Below are positions 2,840-21,293 of a DNA stretch of 22,941 bases, one piece after another. Position numbers and translations under genes: made by a program. The notes under the pieces are model-generated. The model worked only from the letters and a program-made list of their open reading frames with translations, was not told where the DNA came from and made no database searches. The DNA lies in the IMG/VR virus record IMGVR_UViG_3300035670_001297, positions 1 to 22,941 of that record; one strand, written 5' to 3'. How positions within the stretch are numbered: position 1 is the stretch's first letter; each line of letters starts with the position of its first letter. This stretch comes from a virus.

Positions 2840-3188
2840 CTTTACACTTTACGAAAGGGCTTGCAGAGGGGGAGGGGATGTGCTAAGTAGTTGTTAATCC
2901 AGAAGAAATCTATACGCTCTATACAAAATGAGAGAGCGTTGTAAAGGCATCTGTAAAGGTGCCTTCTTCTGCGTTTTCAATGGGTTAGCAGCCAAAAACA
3001 AATCCCTATATAGGACCTGTGGCCACAGGATTTGTGGCGAAAAATTTCTCACACAAAAAACCTGTATAGAATGTAAAGAGGTGGGGTTTGGGTGCGCTAA
3101 CCTATTGTATTTGCTCTCGGATCTTGGACCTTGGGTCTTTACAAACGCCTTTACAGAGGGGTTTTGAAATGTAAAGAGTGTATAGAGC
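2840..3188. promoter_or_regulatory. Repeat-rich control region with TGTAAAG and TGTATAGAGC sites
   Basis: The 578-base gap from 2754 to 3331 has no gene I can support and is clearly richer in A and T than its surroundings. TGTAAAG occurs at 2940, 2952, 3072 and 3170, and its reverse complement CTTTACA at 2840, 3137 and 3149. TGTATAGAGC at 3179-3188 has an exact inverted copy at 2916-2925. The sites lie between the leftward operon and the rightward terminase genes. They could be operators for a phage regulator or iterons of an origin. Which it is cannot be told by reading. Confidence 0.5.
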
Positions 3189-9594: not shown

Positions 9595-9919
9595 GCGCAT
9601 TGGGTGGCAGTTGGTCCCTGCTTTTGAGCATGGGAAGCTGCGAGTGTACTACCGAGGGGACGATCCGGTCGGTTTTGTGACGTGGACGTGGCTCACGAGG
9701 CGTGAGTTCGAGACGCGTGACTACTCTGGAGTGAAGGTTTTCGCCCGAGAGGGTGGCGAAGTGCTCTACATCCCCAACATGATTGCGCCTTACGGGCGTT
9801 CTGATGTATTCTTCATCGCGAAAGACATCCGGCGGCACTTGTCGGAGCTCTATCCGGAGGCCCCCGTGGCGTTGTCTCGGCGTCGGGAGCGTGTTGGCAG
9901 CTACGCTAGGAGAGACTGA
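9488..9919 (+). CDS. HlyC-type toxin acyltransferase family protein, probably lacking catalytic residues
   Basis: From about residue 16 the sequence follows the RTX toxin lysine-acyltransferase (HlyC) pattern: 'NAFLDAVRLWTTTEPYSKYP', 'WQLVPAFEHGKLRVYYRGDDP', 'VGFVTWTWLTRREFE', 'LYIPNMIAPYGRSDVFFIAK'. HlyC enzymes acylate lysines of pore-forming toxins. From memory, HlyC uses His23 in 'NSPLHRNWP' and Asp92 in 'FIDWIAPFG'. By-eye alignment puts Tyr30 and Asn97 in those places, so this member may be inactive or have a new role. I use the ATG at 9488 (143 aa); earlier starts at 9455 or a TTG at 9434 are possible. The gene ends in a TGATG overlap with the 1415-aa gene. Confidence 0.62.
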   Translation: MWIHAAPERFVTPKNAFLDAVRLWTTTEPYSKYPSERIGWQLVPAFEHGKLRVYYRGDDPVGFVTWTWLTRREFETRDYSGVKVFAREGGEVLYIPNMIAPYGRSDVFFIAKDIRRHLSELYPEAPVALSRRRERVGSYARRD

Positions 9920-12900
9920 TGCTGAGACTGCTGGGTTTTGGTGCGGATCGCCGGGTTTTCGGGGGTGGGAGCGAGGGTTCGGGGGCTTCATCTGATGCTC
10001 CGGCTCCCGCTCCTCCACCTGCTCCCGCCCCTCAGGCGATGACGTCACAGGTTTCCAGCGGTCGCGGAACCATTCAGGCCACTGCTCCTCCCACGACGAC
10101 GACGATAAACACGCCTGCAGGGCCAAAAACCGTCTCGACGGCTCCAGCTCCTCCGAGCACGACAGTTCAGGTCAAGACCACGGCGGAGCTTCGCGCGGAA
10201 AAAGAGGCCAAGGATGCCGCTGCGGCGAAGGCGGCGCAGGATAGGGTCAATGAGATCCTCGCCCAGCAGAACGACCGCGACGACCGAGCCCCTGCCGGGA
10301 CGTATACGGGGACGGGAACCACGGCCAAACCGCCGACTCCGAGCACAACGACCGGATCGGGGACGGGAACTACGACGTCTTCGGTCCCCAAAACGTCTAC
10401 GGACAGGGCTGTCGCAGAGATGATTGCTGGCAGGGGAACTACCCCCGTCGTAGGCAACTTCGACGACGAGTACGCGCGTCTGAACCTGCTGGGCGGCATC
10501 CCTGACTACGCGATCAAGGAGTACACGACGACGGGCAGGGTCATTCCCGGATACGAGACGCTGGTCAGCAACTACAACGCGGATCGGCAGAGAGAGAGTG
10601 ACCTTCAACGTCAGCAGGAGGAGCAGGCGAGGGCGGCTGAGGCACTTCGTCAGCAGCAAGCTGAGGCGGCTCGACAGGCGGAGTTGAAGCGTCAGCAGGA
10701 GGAGCAGGCGAGGGCGGCTGAAGCCCTTCGTCAGCAGCAAGCTGAGGCGGCTCGACAGGCGGAGTTGAAGCGTCAGCAGGAGGAGCAGGCGAGGGCGGCT
10801 GAAGCCCTTCGTCAGCAACAACTTGAGGCGGCTCGACAGGCGGAGTTGAGACGTCAGCAGGAGGAGCAGGCGAGGGCGGCTGAAGCCCTTCGTCAGCAAC
10901 AACTTGAGGCGGCTCGACAGGCGGAGTTGAGACGTCAGCAGGAGGAGCAGGCGAGGGCGGCTGAAGCCCTTCGTCAACAGCAGGTGGCAGCGGCGAGAGA
11001 GGCCGCAGAGCGCGCTGCACAAGAGGCGGCACAACTGACGCGAGAGCCTACGCCGTATACTTCTCCTTCGGGGATTGACTATAGCGTCACGGCCACTGGT
11101 CGTCCGTATGGTGAACCCGGGGGTATGGACGGTTCGTTGGGGCTCTACGTCAGCGGGGCAGAGGCTGCGCTGGGACCGGATACGGGAATACTGTACGGGG
11201 ATCTGCCTGATTACTACGGGTCGTATGGGGCGGATCTTGGGGTCACCCCGGGCTACAGCTTTAACCCGGCGACAGGCCGCGTTGAGCCCAACCCGGTCGT
11301 GGACCTCGGTGAGATCAGCATTCCGCCGGAGGAGCAGGACCCATTCGACTTCTCGAATGTGGAGCTTCCTAGGGACTGGGTTGAATCCGTTGAACAGAAC
11401 CTTGTTCGAAACCCAGAGACGGGACGACTTGAGCCGTCAGAATCCCCCACAATGGAGAGCCTGTACGACACGCTCTACGAGAACTTGGTGGGCGTTGGCG
11501 AGGCCGACACGTTCGGCGAGCGCCTAGGTCAGGGGATCAATGACCTAGGCACGCAGTTCGTGTCTGGTGTTGCGACGACGGCTGCAAACACGGTTTCGAC
11601 GCTGGGCAACATCGCGAACTACCTGTCGGACGGCGGCACTAAAAGCATCGAGATGGACACCGATCCGGTGACCGGGGAGACCTTCTTCAGGGAAGTGACG
11701 GGGCCGGTGACGGGCAACCCGCTTCAGAGCGTCTACGACGAGCTGATGCAGTTCTCGCAGGACTTCAAGGCGGAGAACCTGAGCGAGACGGCGAAGGCGG
11801 CGCTGAGGGGGACGGTTATCTCGGGGGACATCTTCAACCCCAGCGCTGGCATAAGCCTCGGCGACGACCCGAGCATGTTCGGTTTGATCTTGCAGGTTGC
11901 CGAGGTTGTTCCGTCGCTGCTGGGTCCGTTGGCCGTGAGCCGGTACAGCACGATTGCTGGCATGGGAACCGCCGGGGTGATTGCGGCGGGCGACCTCGAG
12001 CAAGATGCGCGGACCTACATGCGTGAACTGGCCAGCAGTGGCCAGATGCAGAACCTGCCTGCGTATCAGGAACTGATCGACCAAGGATTCAGCCCTGCTG
12101 AGGCTGCTCAAGCGCTGGAGAACAACGCGTCGCAGTGGGCGGCTACGGTTGGCGCGCCGATTGCGGCGCTGGCTGGCGGTGCGTTCAATAAGGTTGCGAG
12201 CACCACCTTCACGCGTGGGCTCCTTTCGAAGGGTCTTGTTGACGGGACGCTGGCCAAGGGCGCGAATATCGCCGGGAAGGCGGCGGCTGGTTCGGCCATC
12301 GAGAGCGTGACGGAGGTTCTGGAGAACACGAGCGCGAAGCTCGCCACGAACTTGGGCGTTGGGACTGACCGTAACATCACCGAGAACAGCTTCCGAGAGG
12401 CGGTCCTTGGTGCGATGGGCGGTCTCACCGCGTCGGTTGGCGGGTCTGGCGCTGTTCCGGTGGACCCCGGAACGGGCGCCCCGCCTGCTCCGTACACGGC
12501 TCTTTCTTCGATCAACAACCCGCTGCTGGATCAGGCGGACAAGTCGAGGGTCCAGACCCTGCTGGACACGTCCGGGCCTGCTGCGTCGGCGGGTACGGGC
12601 CTTACCTTCAATCAGGACACCGGCCAGTACGAGGAGGTCACGCGCGGGCTTGACCTGATTGGGGACTATGTCAGGCAAGGGGACGGGACGTTCGATCTGC
12701 TGTTCCCGGACACAGAGACGGCGCGGAATGTTGCGGACGATCTCGGCATCAGCACGGCTGGCCTGTCTGGGGATCAGATCGCCAAGTCGATTGCTGACAA
12801 GTTCGGCGCGGCGGGCGGAAACATCGGGCCGGGCGAGGCGCTGCTTGGGACTACAGAGCCTGTCACGGGAGAAGCCGGAGCTGGGACGACTGGCGCGGGC

Positions 12901-14166
12901 ACGCCCTCAACTGGCGCGGGCACGCCCTCAACTGGCGCGACCGGCGCGGGCACGCCTTCTACCGGTACCGAAACCCTCTTCGCGGAACCCGATCTTGGGC
13001 TCGGAGATCCGCTGTCCGACCCTGCGTTCACATGGGCTGCGGATCTTGTGAGCGAGGTCGATCAGCTTGGCACGGTCAGCGACATCACGCTGCAGCGGCT
13101 GAATGCTGACCCTGCGATCTCCAACACGGCGGTGGCGTCTGAGCTCAACGCCTTGGGCATCCCAGCGACGGTTGATCCCACGACGGGGCGCGTTGTTCTA
13201 GGCACGGGAACCGCGCAGCCTACTGCGGATACCACGGGAATTGGCACTCTTCCGGGTGCGTCTGTGGTTACTGGCGCTCCTCTCCCTGCGGAAGTGGTGA
13301 TGGACTCGGTCGGCAACACGGTGGTTCTGACCAACACCACCACGGGCGAGTCACGCACGGTGCAGAAGGACGCGTCGGTTGCCCAAGAGGTGGAGGCGCT
13401 GGCCAACAACCAGCCATCTCCGAGCGGGGCGACGTCCACGTTCACCACTACGGGCACAGGTACTGGAACGGATACGACCGGTACAACCACAACTGGAACA
13501 ACTACAGGCACTACAACCACGGGCACCACGACCGGTACGACCGGCACAACTACCACGGGAACCACCGGCACAACCACTGGACCCACGACGGACGACACGA
13601 CCGGACCGGGGGACGAGTCCGTTACGGGTCCCGCTACGGAGCCCGGCGCTGGGACTCCTACCACTCCGCCTCCTCCGGGCGACAGCGGTGGTACGCCCCC
13701 CGGCGCTCCTCCGGAAGAACCTGCTGGTACGCCTCCCGGAACGCCGTCTGGAACTCCTCCGGAAGAACCACCCGAGGAGACGCCGGAGACGCCGGAGACG
13801 CCCGAGGTTCCCGACATCACCGGAGAGGCCGTCCCTGATTACACCGGAACGCAGGCCCCGTCCCCCATGACGGGCCGCATGCGCCCGGTCATAGGTCCGA
13901 GATACGTGCCGGTACCGACGGGGGGCTACTACCAGTACTCCCCGGAGCTGGTGGGCGGCGTTTCGACGTTCGAGCTGCTGTATCCCGGAGGCTACGGGGC
14001 CCCGGTTCCGAGCGCGCCGAACTACGCGGCTGCGCCTCCGCCTGACCGTGTTGTTTTTGCAACACCTCCGGTTCCGGAGCAGAACTACTATGTCCAGCAG
14101 GGCATAGGTTCTGTGACCCCGGAGCAGGTTCTCGAGCTACAACGGCGTCTTGGCTACATTAGATGA
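9919..14166 (+). CDS. Large repeat-containing virion protein, 1415 aa
   Basis: AGGAGA precedes the ATG closely. Residues 25-180 are Pro/Thr/Ala-rich and probably disordered. Residues 231-365 hold five near-identical 27-residue units (RQQEEQARAAEALRQQQ...), certainly a long helix or coiled coil. Residues about 440-860 look folded and include Ala/Gly-rich hydrophobic stretches (QVAEVVPSLLGPLAVSRYST; VGAPIAALAGGAFNKVA). Residues about 1140-1320 are Thr/Gly- then Pro/Glu-rich, and the protein ends 'VTPEQVLELQRRLGYIR'. Its size, its place between the cell-wall enzyme and the terminase, and the mix of coil and Ala/Gly-rich segments suggest an internal core or DNA-ejection protein. I recognise no family, so this is inference. 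Its stop overlaps the terL start as ATGA. Confidence 0.75.
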   Translation: MLRLLGFGADRRVFGGGSEGSGASSDAPAPAPPPAPAPQAMTSQVSSGRGTIQATAPPTTTTINTPAGPKTVSTAPAPPSTTVQVKTTAELRAEKEAKDAAAAKAAQDRVNEILAQQNDRDDRAPAGTYTGTGTTAKPPTPSTTTGSGTGTTTSSVPKTSTDRAVAEMIAGRGTTPVVGNFDDEYARLNLLGGIPDYAIKEYTTTGRVIPGYETLVSNYNADRQRESDLQRQQEEQARAAEALRQQQAEAARQAELKRQQEEQARAAEALRQQQAEAARQAELKRQQEEQARAAEALRQQQLEAARQAELRRQQEEQARAAEALRQQQLEAARQAELRRQQEEQARAAEALRQQQVAAAREAAERAAQEAAQLTREPTPYTSPSGIDYSVTATGRPYGEPGGMDGSLGLYVSGAEAALGPDTGILYGDLPDYYGSYGADLGVTPGYSFNPATGRVEPNPVVDLGEISIPPEEQDPFDFSNVELPRDWVESVEQNLVRNPETGRLEPSESPTMESLYDTLYENLVGVGEADTFGERLGQGINDLGTQFVSGVATTAANTVSTLGNIANYLSDGGTKSIEMDTDPVTGETFFREVTGPVTGNPLQSVYDELMQFSQDFKAENLSETAKAALRGTVISGDIFNPSAGISLGDDPSMFGLILQVAEVVPSLLGPLAVSRYSTIAGMGTAGVIAAGDLEQDARTYMRELASSGQMQNLPAYQELIDQGFSPAEAAQALENNASQWAATVGAPIAALAGGAFNKVASTTFTRGLLSKGLVDGTLAKGANIAGKAAAGSAIESVTEVLENTSAKLATNLGVGTDRNITENSFREAVLGAMGGLTASVGGSGAVPVDPGTGAPPAPYTALSSINNPLLDQADKSRVQTLLDTSGPAASAGTGLTFNQDTGQYEEVTRGLDLIGDYVRQGDGTFDLLFPDTETARNVADDLGISTAGLSGDQIAKSIADKFGAAGGNIGPGEALLGTTEPVTGEAGAGTTGAGTPSTGAGTPSTGATGAGTPSTGTETLFAEPDLGLGDPLSDPAFTWAADLVSEVDQLGTVSDITLQRLNADPAISNTAVASELNALGIPATVDPTTGRVVLGTGTAQPTADTTGIGTLPGASVVTGAPLPAEVVMDSVGNTVVLTNTTTGESRTVQKDASVAQEVEALANNQPSPSGATSTFTTTGTGTGTDTTGTTTTGTTTGTTTTGTTTGTTGTTTTGTTGTTTGPTTDDTTGPGDESVTGPATEPGAGTPTTPPPPGDSGGTPPGAPPEEPAGTPPGTPSGTPPEEPPEETPETPETPEVPDITGEAVPDYTGTQAPSPMTGRMRPVIGPRYVPVPTGGYYQYSPELVGGVSTFELLYPGGYGAPVPSAPNYAAAPPPDRVVFATPPVPEQNYYVQQGIGSVTPEQVLELQRRLGYIR
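10609..11010 (+). repeat. 81-bp tandem repeat, five copies, in frame
   Basis: Units start at 10609, 10690, 10771, 10852 and 10933. The first four are full and nearly identical at the DNA level; the fifth diverges after about 50 bases. They encode the 27-residue coiled-coil unit of the 1415-aa protein. High DNA identity suggests recent expansion and possible copy-number change. Confidence 0.9.
13430..13610 (+). repeat. Thr-Gly coding low-complexity tract
   Basis: The tract alternates ACC/ACG/ACA/ACT and GGC/GGA/GGT codons, so the peptide repeats TTGT-like units while synonymous codons vary. A smaller repeat coding for GAGTPST lies at about 12893-12965. Varied codons indicate selection for the peptide, not simple slippage. 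Confidence 0.75.
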
Positions 14167-16562
14167 ACATTCACGCGCTGCCTGATGACGTGCTCCGTGA
14201 GCTGTTGATGCTCACGGAGGCGAAGTATCGCCTTGAGATCCGGGAGAAGGCGAGCGAGAACTTCATGCCGTTCGTGCACCACGTGTACGACAACTTCATC
14301 GAGGGCCAGCACCATCGGATCATTGCCGAGAAGCTGGAGCGTGTGGCTCGAGGGGAGTTGAAGCGGCTGATCATCAACATGCCGCCTCGACACTCGAAGT
14401 CGGAGTTTGCCAGCTACCTGATGCCTGCGTGGTTTCTGGGGCGGAACCCGAAGCTGAAGATCATTCAGGCCACGCACAACACCGAGCTGGCGGTTCGGTT
14501 TGGCCGCAAGGTCCGAGATCTGCTGGACGATCCCCGGTATCGGGAGATCTTCCCGAACACGACGCTGAAGGAAGACAACAAGGGCGCTGGCAAGTGGGGC
14601 ACTGACAAGGGCGGCGAGTACTTCGCTGCGGGTGTTGGCGCTGCGGTGACGGGCCGTGGCGCGGACCTGTTCATCATCGATGACCCGCACTCGGAGCAGG
14701 ACGCGTTGAGCGACACTGCGTTCGACCATGCGTACGAATGGTACACGTCCGGTCCTCGGCAGCGTCTGCAGCCGGGCGGCGCGATCATTCTGGTCATGAC
14801 GCGCTGGGGCAAGAAGGATCTGACGGGTCGGCTGATCGAGGCGCAGGCTTCGGACGTGATGGCGGATCAGTGGGAGGTCGTGGAGTTCCCTGCGATCATG
14901 CCGAGCGGCAAGCCGCTGTGGCCTGAGTTCTGGGAGAAGGACGAGCTGCTGCGGATCAAGGCGGCTCTCCCGGTCGCCAAGTGGAGCGCGCAGTGGCAGC
15001 AGCTGCCGACGGGCAGCGAGTCTGCGATCATCAAGCGCGAGTGGTGGCAGGACTGGGAGAAGGAAGACATCCCGAAGGTGGACTACATCCTTCAGGCGTA
15101 TGACACGGCGTACTCGAAGAAGGAGACGGCGGACTTCTCGGCAATCACGACTTGGGGGATCTTCAAGCCGAAGGAGGGAGGTCCGGATCACATCATCCTG
15201 CTGGACGCGCAGCGCGGGCGATGGAGTTTTCCGGAGCTGAAGGAGCTGGCGTATGAGGAGTTCAAGTACTGGGAGCCGGACATGGTCTTGGTCGAGGCCA
15301 AGGCGTCCGGTCGTCCGCTGATCGACGAGCTCCGATTGCGTGGCATCCCGGCGCTGGGGTTTTCACCGGGCAAGCGCGCGGGTGGGGGCGGCGTGGACAA
15401 GACGACGCGGATGCACATGGTTGCGCCGATGTTCGAGGCGGGGCTGGTTTGGGCGCCGAAGAGCAAGAAGTTCTCGGACGAGGTCATCGAAGAGGTTGCA
15501 TCCTTTCCATATGGAGACCATGACGACTTCTGCTTGGCTGAGGGCACACAGGTCCTTATGGCAGACGGATCTCTTGTCTCCGTAGAACAGGTTCGGGCAG
15601 GTGATCTGGTTCACACGCCCGCCGGGCCTAAGCCGGTTCTTGCTGCTCAGCTCACCGGGGTAAAACCGGTGTTGAAGCTGACGGCAGGAGACAACGTCTT
15701 ACTGGGTACAGCAAACCATCGCGTGGCCACCACTTCCGGGTGGAAACGCCTTGACACAATAAGCGTGTCTGATACAGTGAAGCTTGCACCACCTAAGGAG
15801 CTGCTTCTATGCCGTTTGAAACAGATGCAAGTGTGCTGTCCGAACTTGTCGTCTTTGGCGGCAGAAGCTATCGCCGCTACCCGAGTTCTCGCCACCGGCA
15901 TCTTCGAGAATACTTCTCCCGTTCTGGTGGGCGACGGTTTCTCCACCAAGATGTCTGGGAGCGCTACAATGGTCCCATTCCAGAAGGACATCACATCCAC
16001 CACGTGGACGGTAACAGCCGGAACAACGCCCCGGAAAACCTCGTTTGTATCCCGGCTGATGACCACTGGAAGGAGCATCAGGAAGACCGGCAAGAGCACG
16101 GCTTTTCTGAAAGGAACCTCGAGCATCTGGCACGTTGCCGCGAGAAAGCTGCCGACTGGCATAGAAGCGAGGAAGGAAGGCTTTGGCACCGAGACGTTTC
16201 CGCTGGATTTCTTGAGGCTGCCCGTGCCCGCCTTCGGGAAAAACGCGCTGTTCAACGCGCTGACCCCCAGCTTGCGACGTGCGAAGAATGCGGCTGCTCG
16301 TTTCCTTCGCCAACAGGTCGTGCAAAGCTCTGTTCTGCGACGTGCGCCAGTCGAAAGAGTCGTCGAAACCGGCGAGAGCGCAAGGGTGTATGACCTGAAG
16401 GTTGCGGACGCTCACTGTTTTTATGCCAATGGCTTTCTGGTCCACAACTGTGATAGCATGACGCTAGCTTTGATGCGGTTTCGTCAGGGCGGCTTTATCG
16501 CGCTTGCCGGGGAAGAAGAGCCGGAGGGCAAAGAGTTCCGGCGCAAGAAGGAGTACTACTGA
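14163..16562 (+). CDS. terL: Terminase large subunit interrupted by an intein
   Basis: The 799-aa ORF contains a 493-aa terminase plus a 306-aa intein (residues 457-762). The ATPase part has the Walker A-like 'PPRHSKS' (74-80) and Walker B 'LFIIDDPH' (169-176). The RNase H-like nuclease has D314 in 'AYDTAY', E378 in 'VLVEAK' and the third motif 'DHDDF' (D452, D454, D455). The intein splits this third motif: after splicing it would read DHDDF-CDSMTLAL. Unspliced protein should therefore lack nuclease activity and possibly a proper fold. The enzyme translocates and cuts phage DNA at the portal. It starts in an ATGA overlap with the 1415-aa gene and ends in a TGATG overlap with the portal gene. 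Confidence 0.93.
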   Translation: MNIHALPDDVLRELLMLTEAKYRLEIREKASENFMPFVHHVYDNFIEGQHHRIIAEKLERVARGELKRLIINMPPRHSKSEFASYLMPAWFLGRNPKLKIIQATHNTELAVRFGRKVRDLLDDPRYREIFPNTTLKEDNKGAGKWGTDKGGEYFAAGVGAAVTGRGADLFIIDDPHSEQDALSDTAFDHAYEWYTSGPRQRLQPGGAIILVMTRWGKKDLTGRLIEAQASDVMADQWEVVEFPAIMPSGKPLWPEFWEKDELLRIKAALPVAKWSAQWQQLPTGSESAIIKREWWQDWEKEDIPKVDYILQAYDTAYSKKETADFSAITTWGIFKPKEGGPDHIILLDAQRGRWSFPELKELAYEEFKYWEPDMVLVEAKASGRPLIDELRLRGIPALGFSPGKRAGGGGVDKTTRMHMVAPMFEAGLVWAPKSKKFSDEVIEEVASFPYGDHDDFCLAEGTQVLMADGSLVSVEQVRAGDLVHTPAGPKPVLAAQLTGVKPVLKLTAGDNVLLGTANHRVATTSGWKRLDTISVSDTVKLAPPKELLLCRLKQMQVCCPNLSSLAAEAIAATRVLATGIFENTSPVLVGDGFSTKMSGSATMVPFQKDITSTTWTVTAGTTPRKTSFVSRLMTTGRSIRKTGKSTAFLKGTSSIWHVAARKLPTGIEARKEGFGTETFPLDFLRLPVPAFGKNALFNALTPSLRRAKNAAARFLRQQVVQSSVLRRAPVERVVETGESARVYDLKVADAHCFYANGFLVHNCDSMTLALMRFRQGGFIALAGEEEPEGKEFRRKKEYY
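15794..15800 (+). promoter_or_regulatory. Shine-Dalgarno sequence for the nested HNH gene
   Basis: TAAGGAG lies eight bases before the ATG at 15809. In the terL frame the same bases encode P-K-E of the intein. It supports independent translation of the HNH gene from the terL message. Confidence 0.75.
15809..16393 (+). CDS. HNH homing endonuclease nested out of frame inside the intein
   Basis: The 194-aa product is a full HNH endonuclease read in the -1 frame relative to terL. It opens with 'VVFGGRSYRRYPSSRHRHLR' and has the HNH core 'GPIPEGHHIHHVDGNSRNN' (residues 55-73), then 'NLVCIPADDHWKEH' (78-90) with H86 and H90. It ends with a second metal site, C158-x2-C161 and C175-x3-C179, and a basic tail. 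TAAGGAG stands eight bases before its ATG. Its stop lies inside the VYD codons of intein block F, so the gene exactly fills the space where an in-frame endonuclease would be. It should cut intein-less terL alleles and so spread the intein. No frameshift is needed to make either product. Confidence 0.9.
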   Translation: MPFETDASVLSELVVFGGRSYRRYPSSRHRHLREYFSRSGGRRFLHQDVWERYNGPIPEGHHIHHVDGNSRNNAPENLVCIPADDHWKEHQEDRQEHGFSERNLEHLARCREKAADWHRSEEGRLWHRDVSAGFLEAARARLREKRAVQRADPQLATCEECGCSFPSPTGRAKLCSATCASRKSRRNRRERKGV

Positions 16563-20621: not shown

Positions 20622-20833
20622 TGGATGTTGTGGACTTTGCAAAACGTATGTATAGGTTGTTGCGCCAGCGTGAGGAGGAACTCACGGAGATGCTTGCCAA
20701 TGATGGCGCTCTTAACTGGGAGCACTACAAGTCTGTCGTAGGCGAGATACGGGGCCTCGCTTTCGCGCAGGATGAAATAAAGGCCCTGCTGGAGAAGACG
20801 GCAACCGATGTCGAGGACATTATATCTTCCTGA
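20621..20833 (+). CDS. Unknown helical protein, 70 aa
   Basis: The product begins MDVVDFAKRMYRLLRQREEE and is almost completely helical with charged heptads (GEIRGLAFAQDEIKALLEKT). Similar small proteins stand before capsid-assembly genes in related phages, but I do not know the family. It starts in a TGATG overlap and runs 26 bases into the GroES-like gene, so translation is coupled. Confidence 0.75.
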   Translation: MDVVDFAKRMYRLLRQREEELTEMLANDGALNWEHYKSVVGEIRGLAFAQDEIKALLEKTATDVEDIISS

Positions 20834-21293
20834 CCATGTCGCTAAAAAGATCAACGCAGATCGACTTGCGGAGAAAGCCGCAACTTCTGTCGATGCTGCC
20901 TATGTCGAGCCGACGGATCGAGTCCTAGATCCGTCTCTTCTGGACAAATCACTTCTGGATCGTCTGCCTCAGCCCACGGGGTGGCGGATTCTTGTCATGC
21001 CGTACAAGGGCAAGACCCAGACGGAGGGCGGTCTGTTCCTCCCAGATGAGTTTGTCGAGCGTGAAGCGCTGGCCACGGTTGTGGCGTACGTCCTTCGCGT
21101 CGGCCCAGAGGCATACAAATCGGAGAGCAAGTTTGGTCCGGGGGCCGCTCCGTGGTGCAAGCAGGGCGATTGGGTTTGCATTGGCCGGTACTCGGGTTCC
21201 CGGTTCAAGATCGACGGCGGCGAGGTTCGCATCATCAACGACGACGAGGTGATTGCGACCCTGCTGAACCCGGACGACATCAGGCACGTATAG
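20808..21293 (+). CDS. GroES-like co-chaperonin, 161 aa
   Basis: Residues 55-160 form a Cpn10-like domain: 'QPTGWRILVMPYKGKTQTEG' then 'GLFLPDEFVEREALATVVAY' (with the mobile loop that docks onto GroEL), 'GDWVCIGRYSGSRFKIDGGE' and 'IINDDEVIATLLNPDDI'. Phage co-chaperonins, such as T4 gp31, work with host GroEL to fold the capsid protein. The N-terminal 54 residues are an extra segment not found in bacterial GroES. The gene lies just before the scaffold and capsid genes, consistent with that role. Confidence 0.85.
   Translation: MSRTLYLPDHVAKKINADRLAEKAATSVDAAYVEPTDRVLDPSLLDKSLLDRLPQPTGWRILVMPYKGKTQTEGGLFLPDEFVEREALATVVAYVLRVGPEAYKSESKFGPGAAPWCKQGDWVCIGRYSGSRFKIDGGEVRIINDDEVIATLLNPDDIRHV

What the first reader, a model, noticed from the sequence alone, without database searches (positions are those of the whole stretch)
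15809..16393. A complete HNH endonuclease gene hidden out of frame inside an intein
Seen directly: the terL intein (15531-16448) has complete A, B, F and G blocks, yet its middle contains no in-frame endonuclease motif. In the -1 frame the same bases encode a full 194-aa HNH protein (HHIHHVDGN core, C-x2-C/C-x3-C tail). It has TAAGGAG eight bases before its ATG and a stop in the first codons of block F. Known inteins usually carry the nuclease fused in frame, or are mini-inteins without one. Here splicing and homing functions share DNA but make separate proteins. This would keep the intein small in protein function, separate nuclease dose from terminase dose, and place both frames under selection. 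I do not recall such a nested design as an established class, but cannot check.
Basis: partly seen in the sequence, partly recalled or inferred. Interest (0 to 1): 0.95.

Follow-up and report, generated by a model that had tools for sequence, protein, structure and literature searches.

The report
Out-of-frame nuclease inside a terminase intein
A self-splicing insert in a virus packaging gene also carries a complete gene for a DNA-cutting enzyme, written in another reading frame of the same DNA, and many related viruses are built the same way.

Summary
Confirmed. The terminase large subunit gene (terL, 14163-16562) carries an intein (15531-16448); the same DNA in the -1 frame encodes a 194-aa HNH endonuclease (15809-16393; HNH_3 E 3e-15) with its own Shine-Dalgarno, start and stop. 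It is neither chance nor a sequencing error. Of 170 non-redundant places holding this HNH family, 136 are nested in an open intein frame in the -1 register, 4 in +1 (one clade), none fused in frame; in 16 the intein N-half stops first, in 14 none was detected. The HNH frame is under purifying selection; the intein frame over the same bases shows no amino-acid constraint and is predicted disordered, while HNH folds confidently. Most likely the intein splices out of TerL and a separately initiated HNH drives homing; expression, splicing and cutting are untested. Precedents: one 2015 sentence on brucellaphages and out-of-frame HNH insertions without an intein. Ten searches found no description of the class; a possibly relevant 2025 preprint is not held.

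The parts
14163..16562 (+). terL: terminase large subunit precursor, 799 aa, containing the intein; stop at 16560-16562
   Evidence: ORF; phrog_38 E 3e-100; TIGR01630
14163..15530 (+). N-extein of TerL, ending ...GDHDDF
   Evidence: three intein-less relatives read through at this point
15531..16448 (+). intein (Cys1 ... His-Asn), 306 aa; splicing blocks at both ends
   Evidence: PF14890, TIGR01443; predicted fold matches the Mtu RecA intein splicing domain
15794..15800 (+). TAAGGAG, likely Shine-Dalgarno of the HNH gene, lying within intein codons (...PPKELL...)
   Evidence: AAGGAG at the same spacing in L002, L003, L004
15809..16393 (+). nested HNH endonuclease gene, 194 aa, frame -1 relative to terL
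   Evidence: PF13392 E 3e-15; model pLDDT 94.7
15998..16066 (+). HNH core (H64, H65, D67, N73, N77, H86)
   Evidence: invariant in the 91 nested HNH proteins aligned, a sample of 132
16280..16345 (+). C-terminal zinc-ribbon-like part (C158, C161, C175, C179)
   Evidence: invariant in the same 91; zinc binding inferred
16350..16448 (+). intein C-terminal splicing blocks F and G; the HNH stop TGA 16391-16393 lies inside
   Evidence: pLDDT 95-98 from residue 271 on
16449..16562 (+). C-extein of TerL, starting with Cys+1 (CDSMTLALMR)

Best explanation
A composite mobile element sits in terL. In the terL frame it is an intein that removes itself from TerL. Between its splicing blocks lies a second gene in the -1 frame: a separately initiated HNH endonuclease that most likely cuts intein-less terL so that the whole insert is copied in by repair (homing). 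Over the shared bases only HNH is a functional protein; the intein frame there is a disordered spacer that must stay free of stops. Shown by sequence analysis: both coding sequences, recurring start and stop placement, purifying selection on HNH, the open spacer, recurrence in TerL genes of several PHROG families. Inferred: splicing, HNH synthesis, cutting of the empty site, homing.
For: Families. Recurrence: 136 of 170 non-redundant places nested in frame -1, 4 in +1, 0 fused in frame; among the 109 places that came only through the HNH-driven scans, 79 are -1, 4 are +1, 15 have a stopped N-half, 11 have none. Selection: rates 0.119 (HNH-silent, intein-changing), 0.0445 (both changing), 0.0405 (HNH-changing, intein-silent); HNH-silent changes that alone would put a stop in the intein frame 0.073; HNH identity above intein-frame identity in 55 of 55 nearest-neighbour pairs. 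Initiation: start candidate in 134 of 135, ATG in 115; five or more Shine-Dalgarno bases in 80 of 134 against 14% of matched internal starts. HNH stops a median 43 nt before the intein end. Structure: intein residues 1-90 and 271-306 above pLDDT 90, residues 101-240 at 42-53, HNH 94.7. Core and Cys residues invariant in 91 of 91 sampled. Empty site in three phages with 58-59% identical TerL, with Val where the occupied site has Cys; their complete genomes hold no relative of this HNH. HNH-less mini-intein in an 81% identical TerL.
Against: No expression, splicing or cleavage data. Window alone: open spacer has probability 0.41 and HNH-frame codon usage is not more TerL-like (-0.172 against -0.156). 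The best solved fold for the HNH model is I-HmuI at only E 0.13. Distances of HNH, intein and TerL correlate about equally (rho 0.40, 0.43, 0.46 on 118 of 135 elements), so frequent movement between distant TerLs is not shown. The 55 pairs share sequences and are not independent. 54 of 134 start candidates have fewer than five Shine-Dalgarno bases. One search kept the best 80 of 237 by a full-intein match, so HNH-less forms are probably under-sampled.
Confidence: 0.82

Rival explanations
1. HNH is made only as an extension of TerL-IntN by programmed -1 ribosomal frameshifting, not as a separate protein.
For: 136 of 140 nested genes lie in the -1 register.
Against: The HNH frame opens a median 8 codons before the chosen start, leaving little room; canonical slippery heptamers occur in 4 of 135 such zones against 11 of 390 control zones; Shine-Dalgarno matches are enriched; a +1-register clade and free-standing homologues exist. 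The -1 preference is explained by stops: 2.1 expected in the host frame for this register against 14.3 for the other.
Confidence: 0.05
2. HNH is a DNA-packaging partner of TerL, like the terminase-associated HNH proteins, not a homing nuclease.
For: It is found inside or beside terminase genes in many of the loci; suggested for brucellaphages.
Against: Three complete relatives with 58-59% identical, intein-less TerL have no relative of this HNH and no PF01844 HNH. L030, with an 81% identical TerL, keeps the mini-intein without HNH, though its contig is a fragment. The family is HNH_3 and the nearest solved fold, weakly, is the homing enzyme I-HmuI.
Confidence: 0.08
3. The nested ORF is a decaying relic with no present function.
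For: HNH-less relatives exist.
Against: Purifying selection on the HNH frame, invariant core residues in 91 of 91 sampled, enriched start signals.
Confidence: 0.04

Closest known systems
Brucellaphage HNH ORF 8 inside the terminase gene (PMC4422536, Virol J 2015)
   Different: One phage type. In what I read (passages and section 14 part 1) I saw no analysis of splicing blocks, selection between frames, start signals or wider distribution. I could not fetch its sequence, so whether it belongs to this HNH family is not tested.
ShiLan domain and Pacc40 insertion, 'hidden HNH' in phage methylases (PMC11855218, Genes 2025)
   Same: HNH gene out of frame in an insertion that keeps the host ORF open; homing proposed.
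   Different: The authors found no intein or intron splicing domain and no ribosome-binding site; here both are present.
Split inteins and 'fractured genes' (Dassa et al. 2009: seen only in a reference list; content recalled)
   Same: Homing gene between intein halves; Vibrio phage 1.245.O and other loci here have the N-half stopped and the C-half on another ORF around this HNH.
   Different: In the window the intein is contiguous and the nuclease gene overlaps it.
Canonical inteins with a fused endonuclease domain (for example PI-SceI; description recalled)
   Same: Same splicing fold; nuclease placed between N- and C-terminal splicing blocks.
   Different: Here the nuclease is a separate out-of-frame gene.
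HNH genes annotated as separate CDS by terminase genes (Pseudomonas PAE1, Sphaerotilus SN1, Lactobacillus CL2, Acinetobacter BP10)
   Same: Related HNH of similar length (205-213 aa).
   Different: Own gene outside the terL ORF.

Membership tests
Intein | N-terminal Cys/Ser, block B T-x2-H, C-terminal His-Asn followed by C/S/T, continuous with the host ORF (criteria recalled) | tested here: met
   C1, T60, H63, VHN|C
Intein | Hint/splicing fold | tested here: met
   PF14890, TIGR01443; Foldseek 3ifj E 1.1e-6, TMt 0.80, though rmsd 11.9 over the long gapped alignment
Intein | Protein splicing activity | not testable with these tools
   needs expression
Intein with fused homing endonuclease domain | Endonuclease in the same frame as the splicing blocks | tested here: not met
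   HNH in frame -1; 0 of 140 non-redundant nested relatives fused in frame
HNH endonuclease (HNH_3) | Profile match and conserved His/Asn/His core | tested here: met
   E 3e-15; invariant residues in 91 of 91 sampled
Homing endonuclease | Cuts the empty allele and promotes its own copying | not testable with these tools
   only presence and absence at one site shown
ShiLan-type hidden HNH insertion | Out-of-frame HNH with no splicing domain | tested here: not met
   an intein is present
Split intein / fractured gene | Intein halves on separate ORFs | tested here: not met
   window intein is one ORF; met in some relatives
Terminase-associated packaging HNH | Required for packaging | not testable with these tools
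   no relative of this HNH and no PF01844 match in three intein-less relatives, which argues against

The most novel reading that the evidence does not exclude
This is the usual state of a widespread, old class of dual-coded mobile elements: an HNH homing gene that settled in a TerL mini-intein in the one register poor in host-frame stops and was kept there across TerL families of phages of bacteria and archaea. A single stop in the spacer frame can then turn a contiguous intein into a split intein with a homing gene between its halves, giving a direct route to 'fractured genes'.
Probability: 0.5. Interest if true: 0.88.

Novelty: new variant of a known kind. Interest (0 to 1): 0.82.

Why it matters
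Inteins are usually described (recalled) as a splicing domain with a fused endonuclease or without one. Here a large group appears to use a third design: two proteins read from the same bases in different frames. Annotation misses it: the records of Acinetobacter Highwayman, Tetrasphaera TJE1 and Rhodobacteraceae LS06 list only a long terminase at the place. It gives a natural dual-coding system with a simple reason for the frame used (stop codons) and a testable path from contiguous to split inteins.

Tried and rejected
Frameshift origin of the HNH protein: slippery heptamers no more common than in control zones. A constant HNH stop supplied by a TAT codon at the block F tyrosine: 38 TAT against 62 TAC in the 100 elements where the motif was found, no bias; the stop overlaps that codon in 32, lies after it in 56 and before it in 12. 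Clear spread of HNH plus intein between very distant TerLs: only 1 pair fits. A statistical proof from open frames: the 135 nested loci were chosen for being open, so their zero stops are by construction; free-standing homologues have no host-register stop in 1 of 10. Sequencing-indel artefact: rejected. PF01844 packaging HNH in the window, L030, L031 and three intein-less relatives: none found in 6 of 6 records; the control rang in 10 of 14 genomes. My first count, 137 of 139, required a detected C-block; I replaced it, which does not, and which revealed three further +1-register loci beside L168 and the loci whose N-half stops. Literature: ten searches; the library is open-licence PubMed Central only, so absence from print is not shown.

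Full report
WHAT IS THERE. The window is a 22,941-base virus record. Its terL gene (14163-16562) holds an intein at 15531-16448 with Cys1, the block B T-x2-H, a penultimate His, a final Asn and Cys+1 (block names and criteria recalled). Pfam Intein_splicing just passes its cut-off when the intein is given alone (36.2 against 35.8 bits) and TIGR01443 matches the C-terminal block. The -1 frame encodes a 194-aa protein, 15809-16393, with HNH_3 at E 3e-15 and phrog_15471 HNH endonuclease at 6e-19. TAAGGAG ends 8 nt before its ATG; its TGA overlaps the Tyr-Asp codons of block F.

RELATIVES. A first scan found three contigs with 75-80% identical HNH (L002, L003, L004), each with an open TerL-intein frame and an HNH in the same relative register, starting with GTG. 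Named phages show the same: Acinetobacter Highwayman, Tetrasphaera TJE1, Rhodobacteraceae LS06; so does an unannotated record, MT838676, which is not in the counts below. Asking for an HNH match and looking for an intein N-half upstream, without requiring a C-half, and removing near-copies, 212 places reduce to 170: nested -1 136, nested +1 4, N-half ORF stopping before the HNH ends 16, no N-half detected 14 (a few of these at contig ends), fused in frame 0. In two of the 16 (L202, L206) the HNH ORF follows the N-half's stop in the same frame. Because intein-driven scans could favour this design, I counted apart the places that came only through the HNH-driven scans: of 109, 79 nested -1, 4 nested +1, 15 stopped, 11 without N-half. 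Record titles of loci with contiguous nested inteins include Frankia, Glycomyces, Bacteroides, Parabacteroides, Simkania and a Thermoplasmatales chromosome. Of 126 N-exteins of at least 150 aa I scanned 74: the thirteen most frequent PHROG families are all terminase large subunit, the commonest matching 51; the union over families was not counted. One of eight looked at singly, L214, matched nothing. L051, L080 and L113 carry two such inteins in one ORF, each with its own out-of-frame HNH.

WHICH FRAME IS THE REAL PROTEIN. In 55 nearest-neighbour pairs drawn from 135 nested elements (nucleotide identity 60-97%), mean identity is 75% for HNH, 54% for the intein frame over the same bases and 71% for the intein N-block. 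Changes silent in HNH but altering the intein frame occur at 0.119 per weighted opportunity (5838/48923), changes altering both at 0.0445, changes altering HNH but silent in the intein frame at 0.0405. HNH-silent changes that alone would make a stop in the intein frame are rarer (0.073) than other HNH-silent ones. So HNH is conserved; the spacer's amino acids are not, only its openness. Window against L004: 31, 17 and 70 differences at HNH codon positions 1, 2, 3. Synonymous usage is closer to TerL's in the HNH frame in 83 of 115 loci, the window being an exception. AlphaFold2, on alignments of 75 inteins and 91 HNH proteins sampled from 132 elements, gives the intein ends pLDDT above 90 but 42-53 for residues 101-240, and 94.7 for HNH. 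The intein model matches the Mtu RecA splicing domain; the HNH model's best hit is I-HmuI, weakly (E 0.13).

WHY THE -1 REGISTER. Recoding the 135 HNH genes synonymously gives on average 2.1 stops in the host frame for this register and 14.3 for the other; the observed third frame has 14.1. The register used is the one a terminase can be read through. The zero stops observed are by selection of open loci; ten free-standing relatives have 0 to 10 stops in that register, 1 of 10 with none. For the window alone the chance of none is 0.41, so the argument rests on the class: 140 of the 156 intein-associated places are open.

HOW IT IS LIKELY EXPRESSED. Of 135 nested elements 134 have a start candidate (115 ATG, 15 GTG, 4 TTG), a median 266 nt into the intein; 80 of 134 have five or more matching Shine-Dalgarno bases against 14% of internal terL-frame starts with the same number of candidates (the best candidate was chosen in both sets). 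HNH stops a median 43 nt before the intein's end, and slippery heptamers are not enriched (4 of 135 against 11 of 390). A separately initiated protein is the simplest reading.

MOBILITY. Three phages with 58-59% identical TerL lack the intein at exactly this point: they read DDL|VDS where the window reads DDF|intein|CDS. Their complete genomes hold no relative of this HNH and no PF01844 HNH. L030, a fragment contig with an 81% identical TerL, has a 126-aa mini-intein and no HNH; L031 gave the same match and also no HNH. This pattern fits a homing cycle and argues against an essential packaging role. Acinetobacter BP10 carries an HNH 51% identical to Highwayman's as a separate gene next to its small terminase gene, while the two TerLs are only 28% alike over part of their length. 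The HNH tree (FastTree; 38 of 167 inner branches strong) makes the +1 register one group (support 92) and scatters the stopped and free forms (8 and 11 changes). In Vibrio phage 1.245.O the N-half stops at 3037, the C-half lies on another ORF and HNH overlaps both. Of the 16 stopped cases 12, this one included, show a separate C-half ORF and two more (L171, L201); L194 looks like a plain frameshift and for L208 none was found.

PRIOR ART. PMC4422536 (passages and section 14 part 1 read) states that brucellaphages have a putative intein-encoded HNH gene out of frame within terL. PMC11855218 (abstract, passages, Results and Discussion read) describes out-of-frame HNH insertions without splicing domains. 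PMC12613952 (passages) reports one in phage Applejack's methylase. PMC3670811 (passages) reports a terL intein and separate HNH genes in N4-like Vibrio phages. PMC10448857 (passages) treats phage homing genes; the passages show nothing of this design. The preprint 10.1101/2025.01.02.630785 was seen only as a reference and is not held; its title speaks of non-canonical intein architecture, so it may cover part of this.

VERDICT. Real, conserved, and common within this HNH family; a new variant of the known intein-plus-homing-nuclease kind rather than a new kind of system.

Noticed in passing
L051, L080, L113 (also L095): One terL ORF carries a second nested HNH intein, inserted after FRG[PA]QFHG[AG]W and before CDELAA, besides the one at the usual site (both seen for L051, L080 and L113; for L095 the second is the match).
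   Followed up: partly
L015 158-3889 (Vibrio phage 1.245.O): terL has an additional intein in its N-terminal part and, near its C-terminus, a split intein whose two halves overlap an HNH ORF.
   Followed up: partly
L154, L168, L173, L175: Nested HNH genes in the +1 register, one group in the tree: a register change within the class.
   Followed up: partly
L241 1381-3768 (Escherichia phage BUCT618): terL with an insert of intein appearance (starts CFPASQIIS, ends VVSN|C) at another site; no HNH seen in the ORFs of 120 aa or more that were printed.
   Followed up: no
window 9919-14163: 1415-aa protein with repeated RQQEEQARAAEAL-type units and a stretch of about 230 residues matching a virion RNA polymerase family (phrog_2206, E 9e-13).
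   Followed up: no
window 20808-21293: Phage-encoded GroES-like co-chaperonin (phrog_3188, E 9e-17).
   Followed up: no
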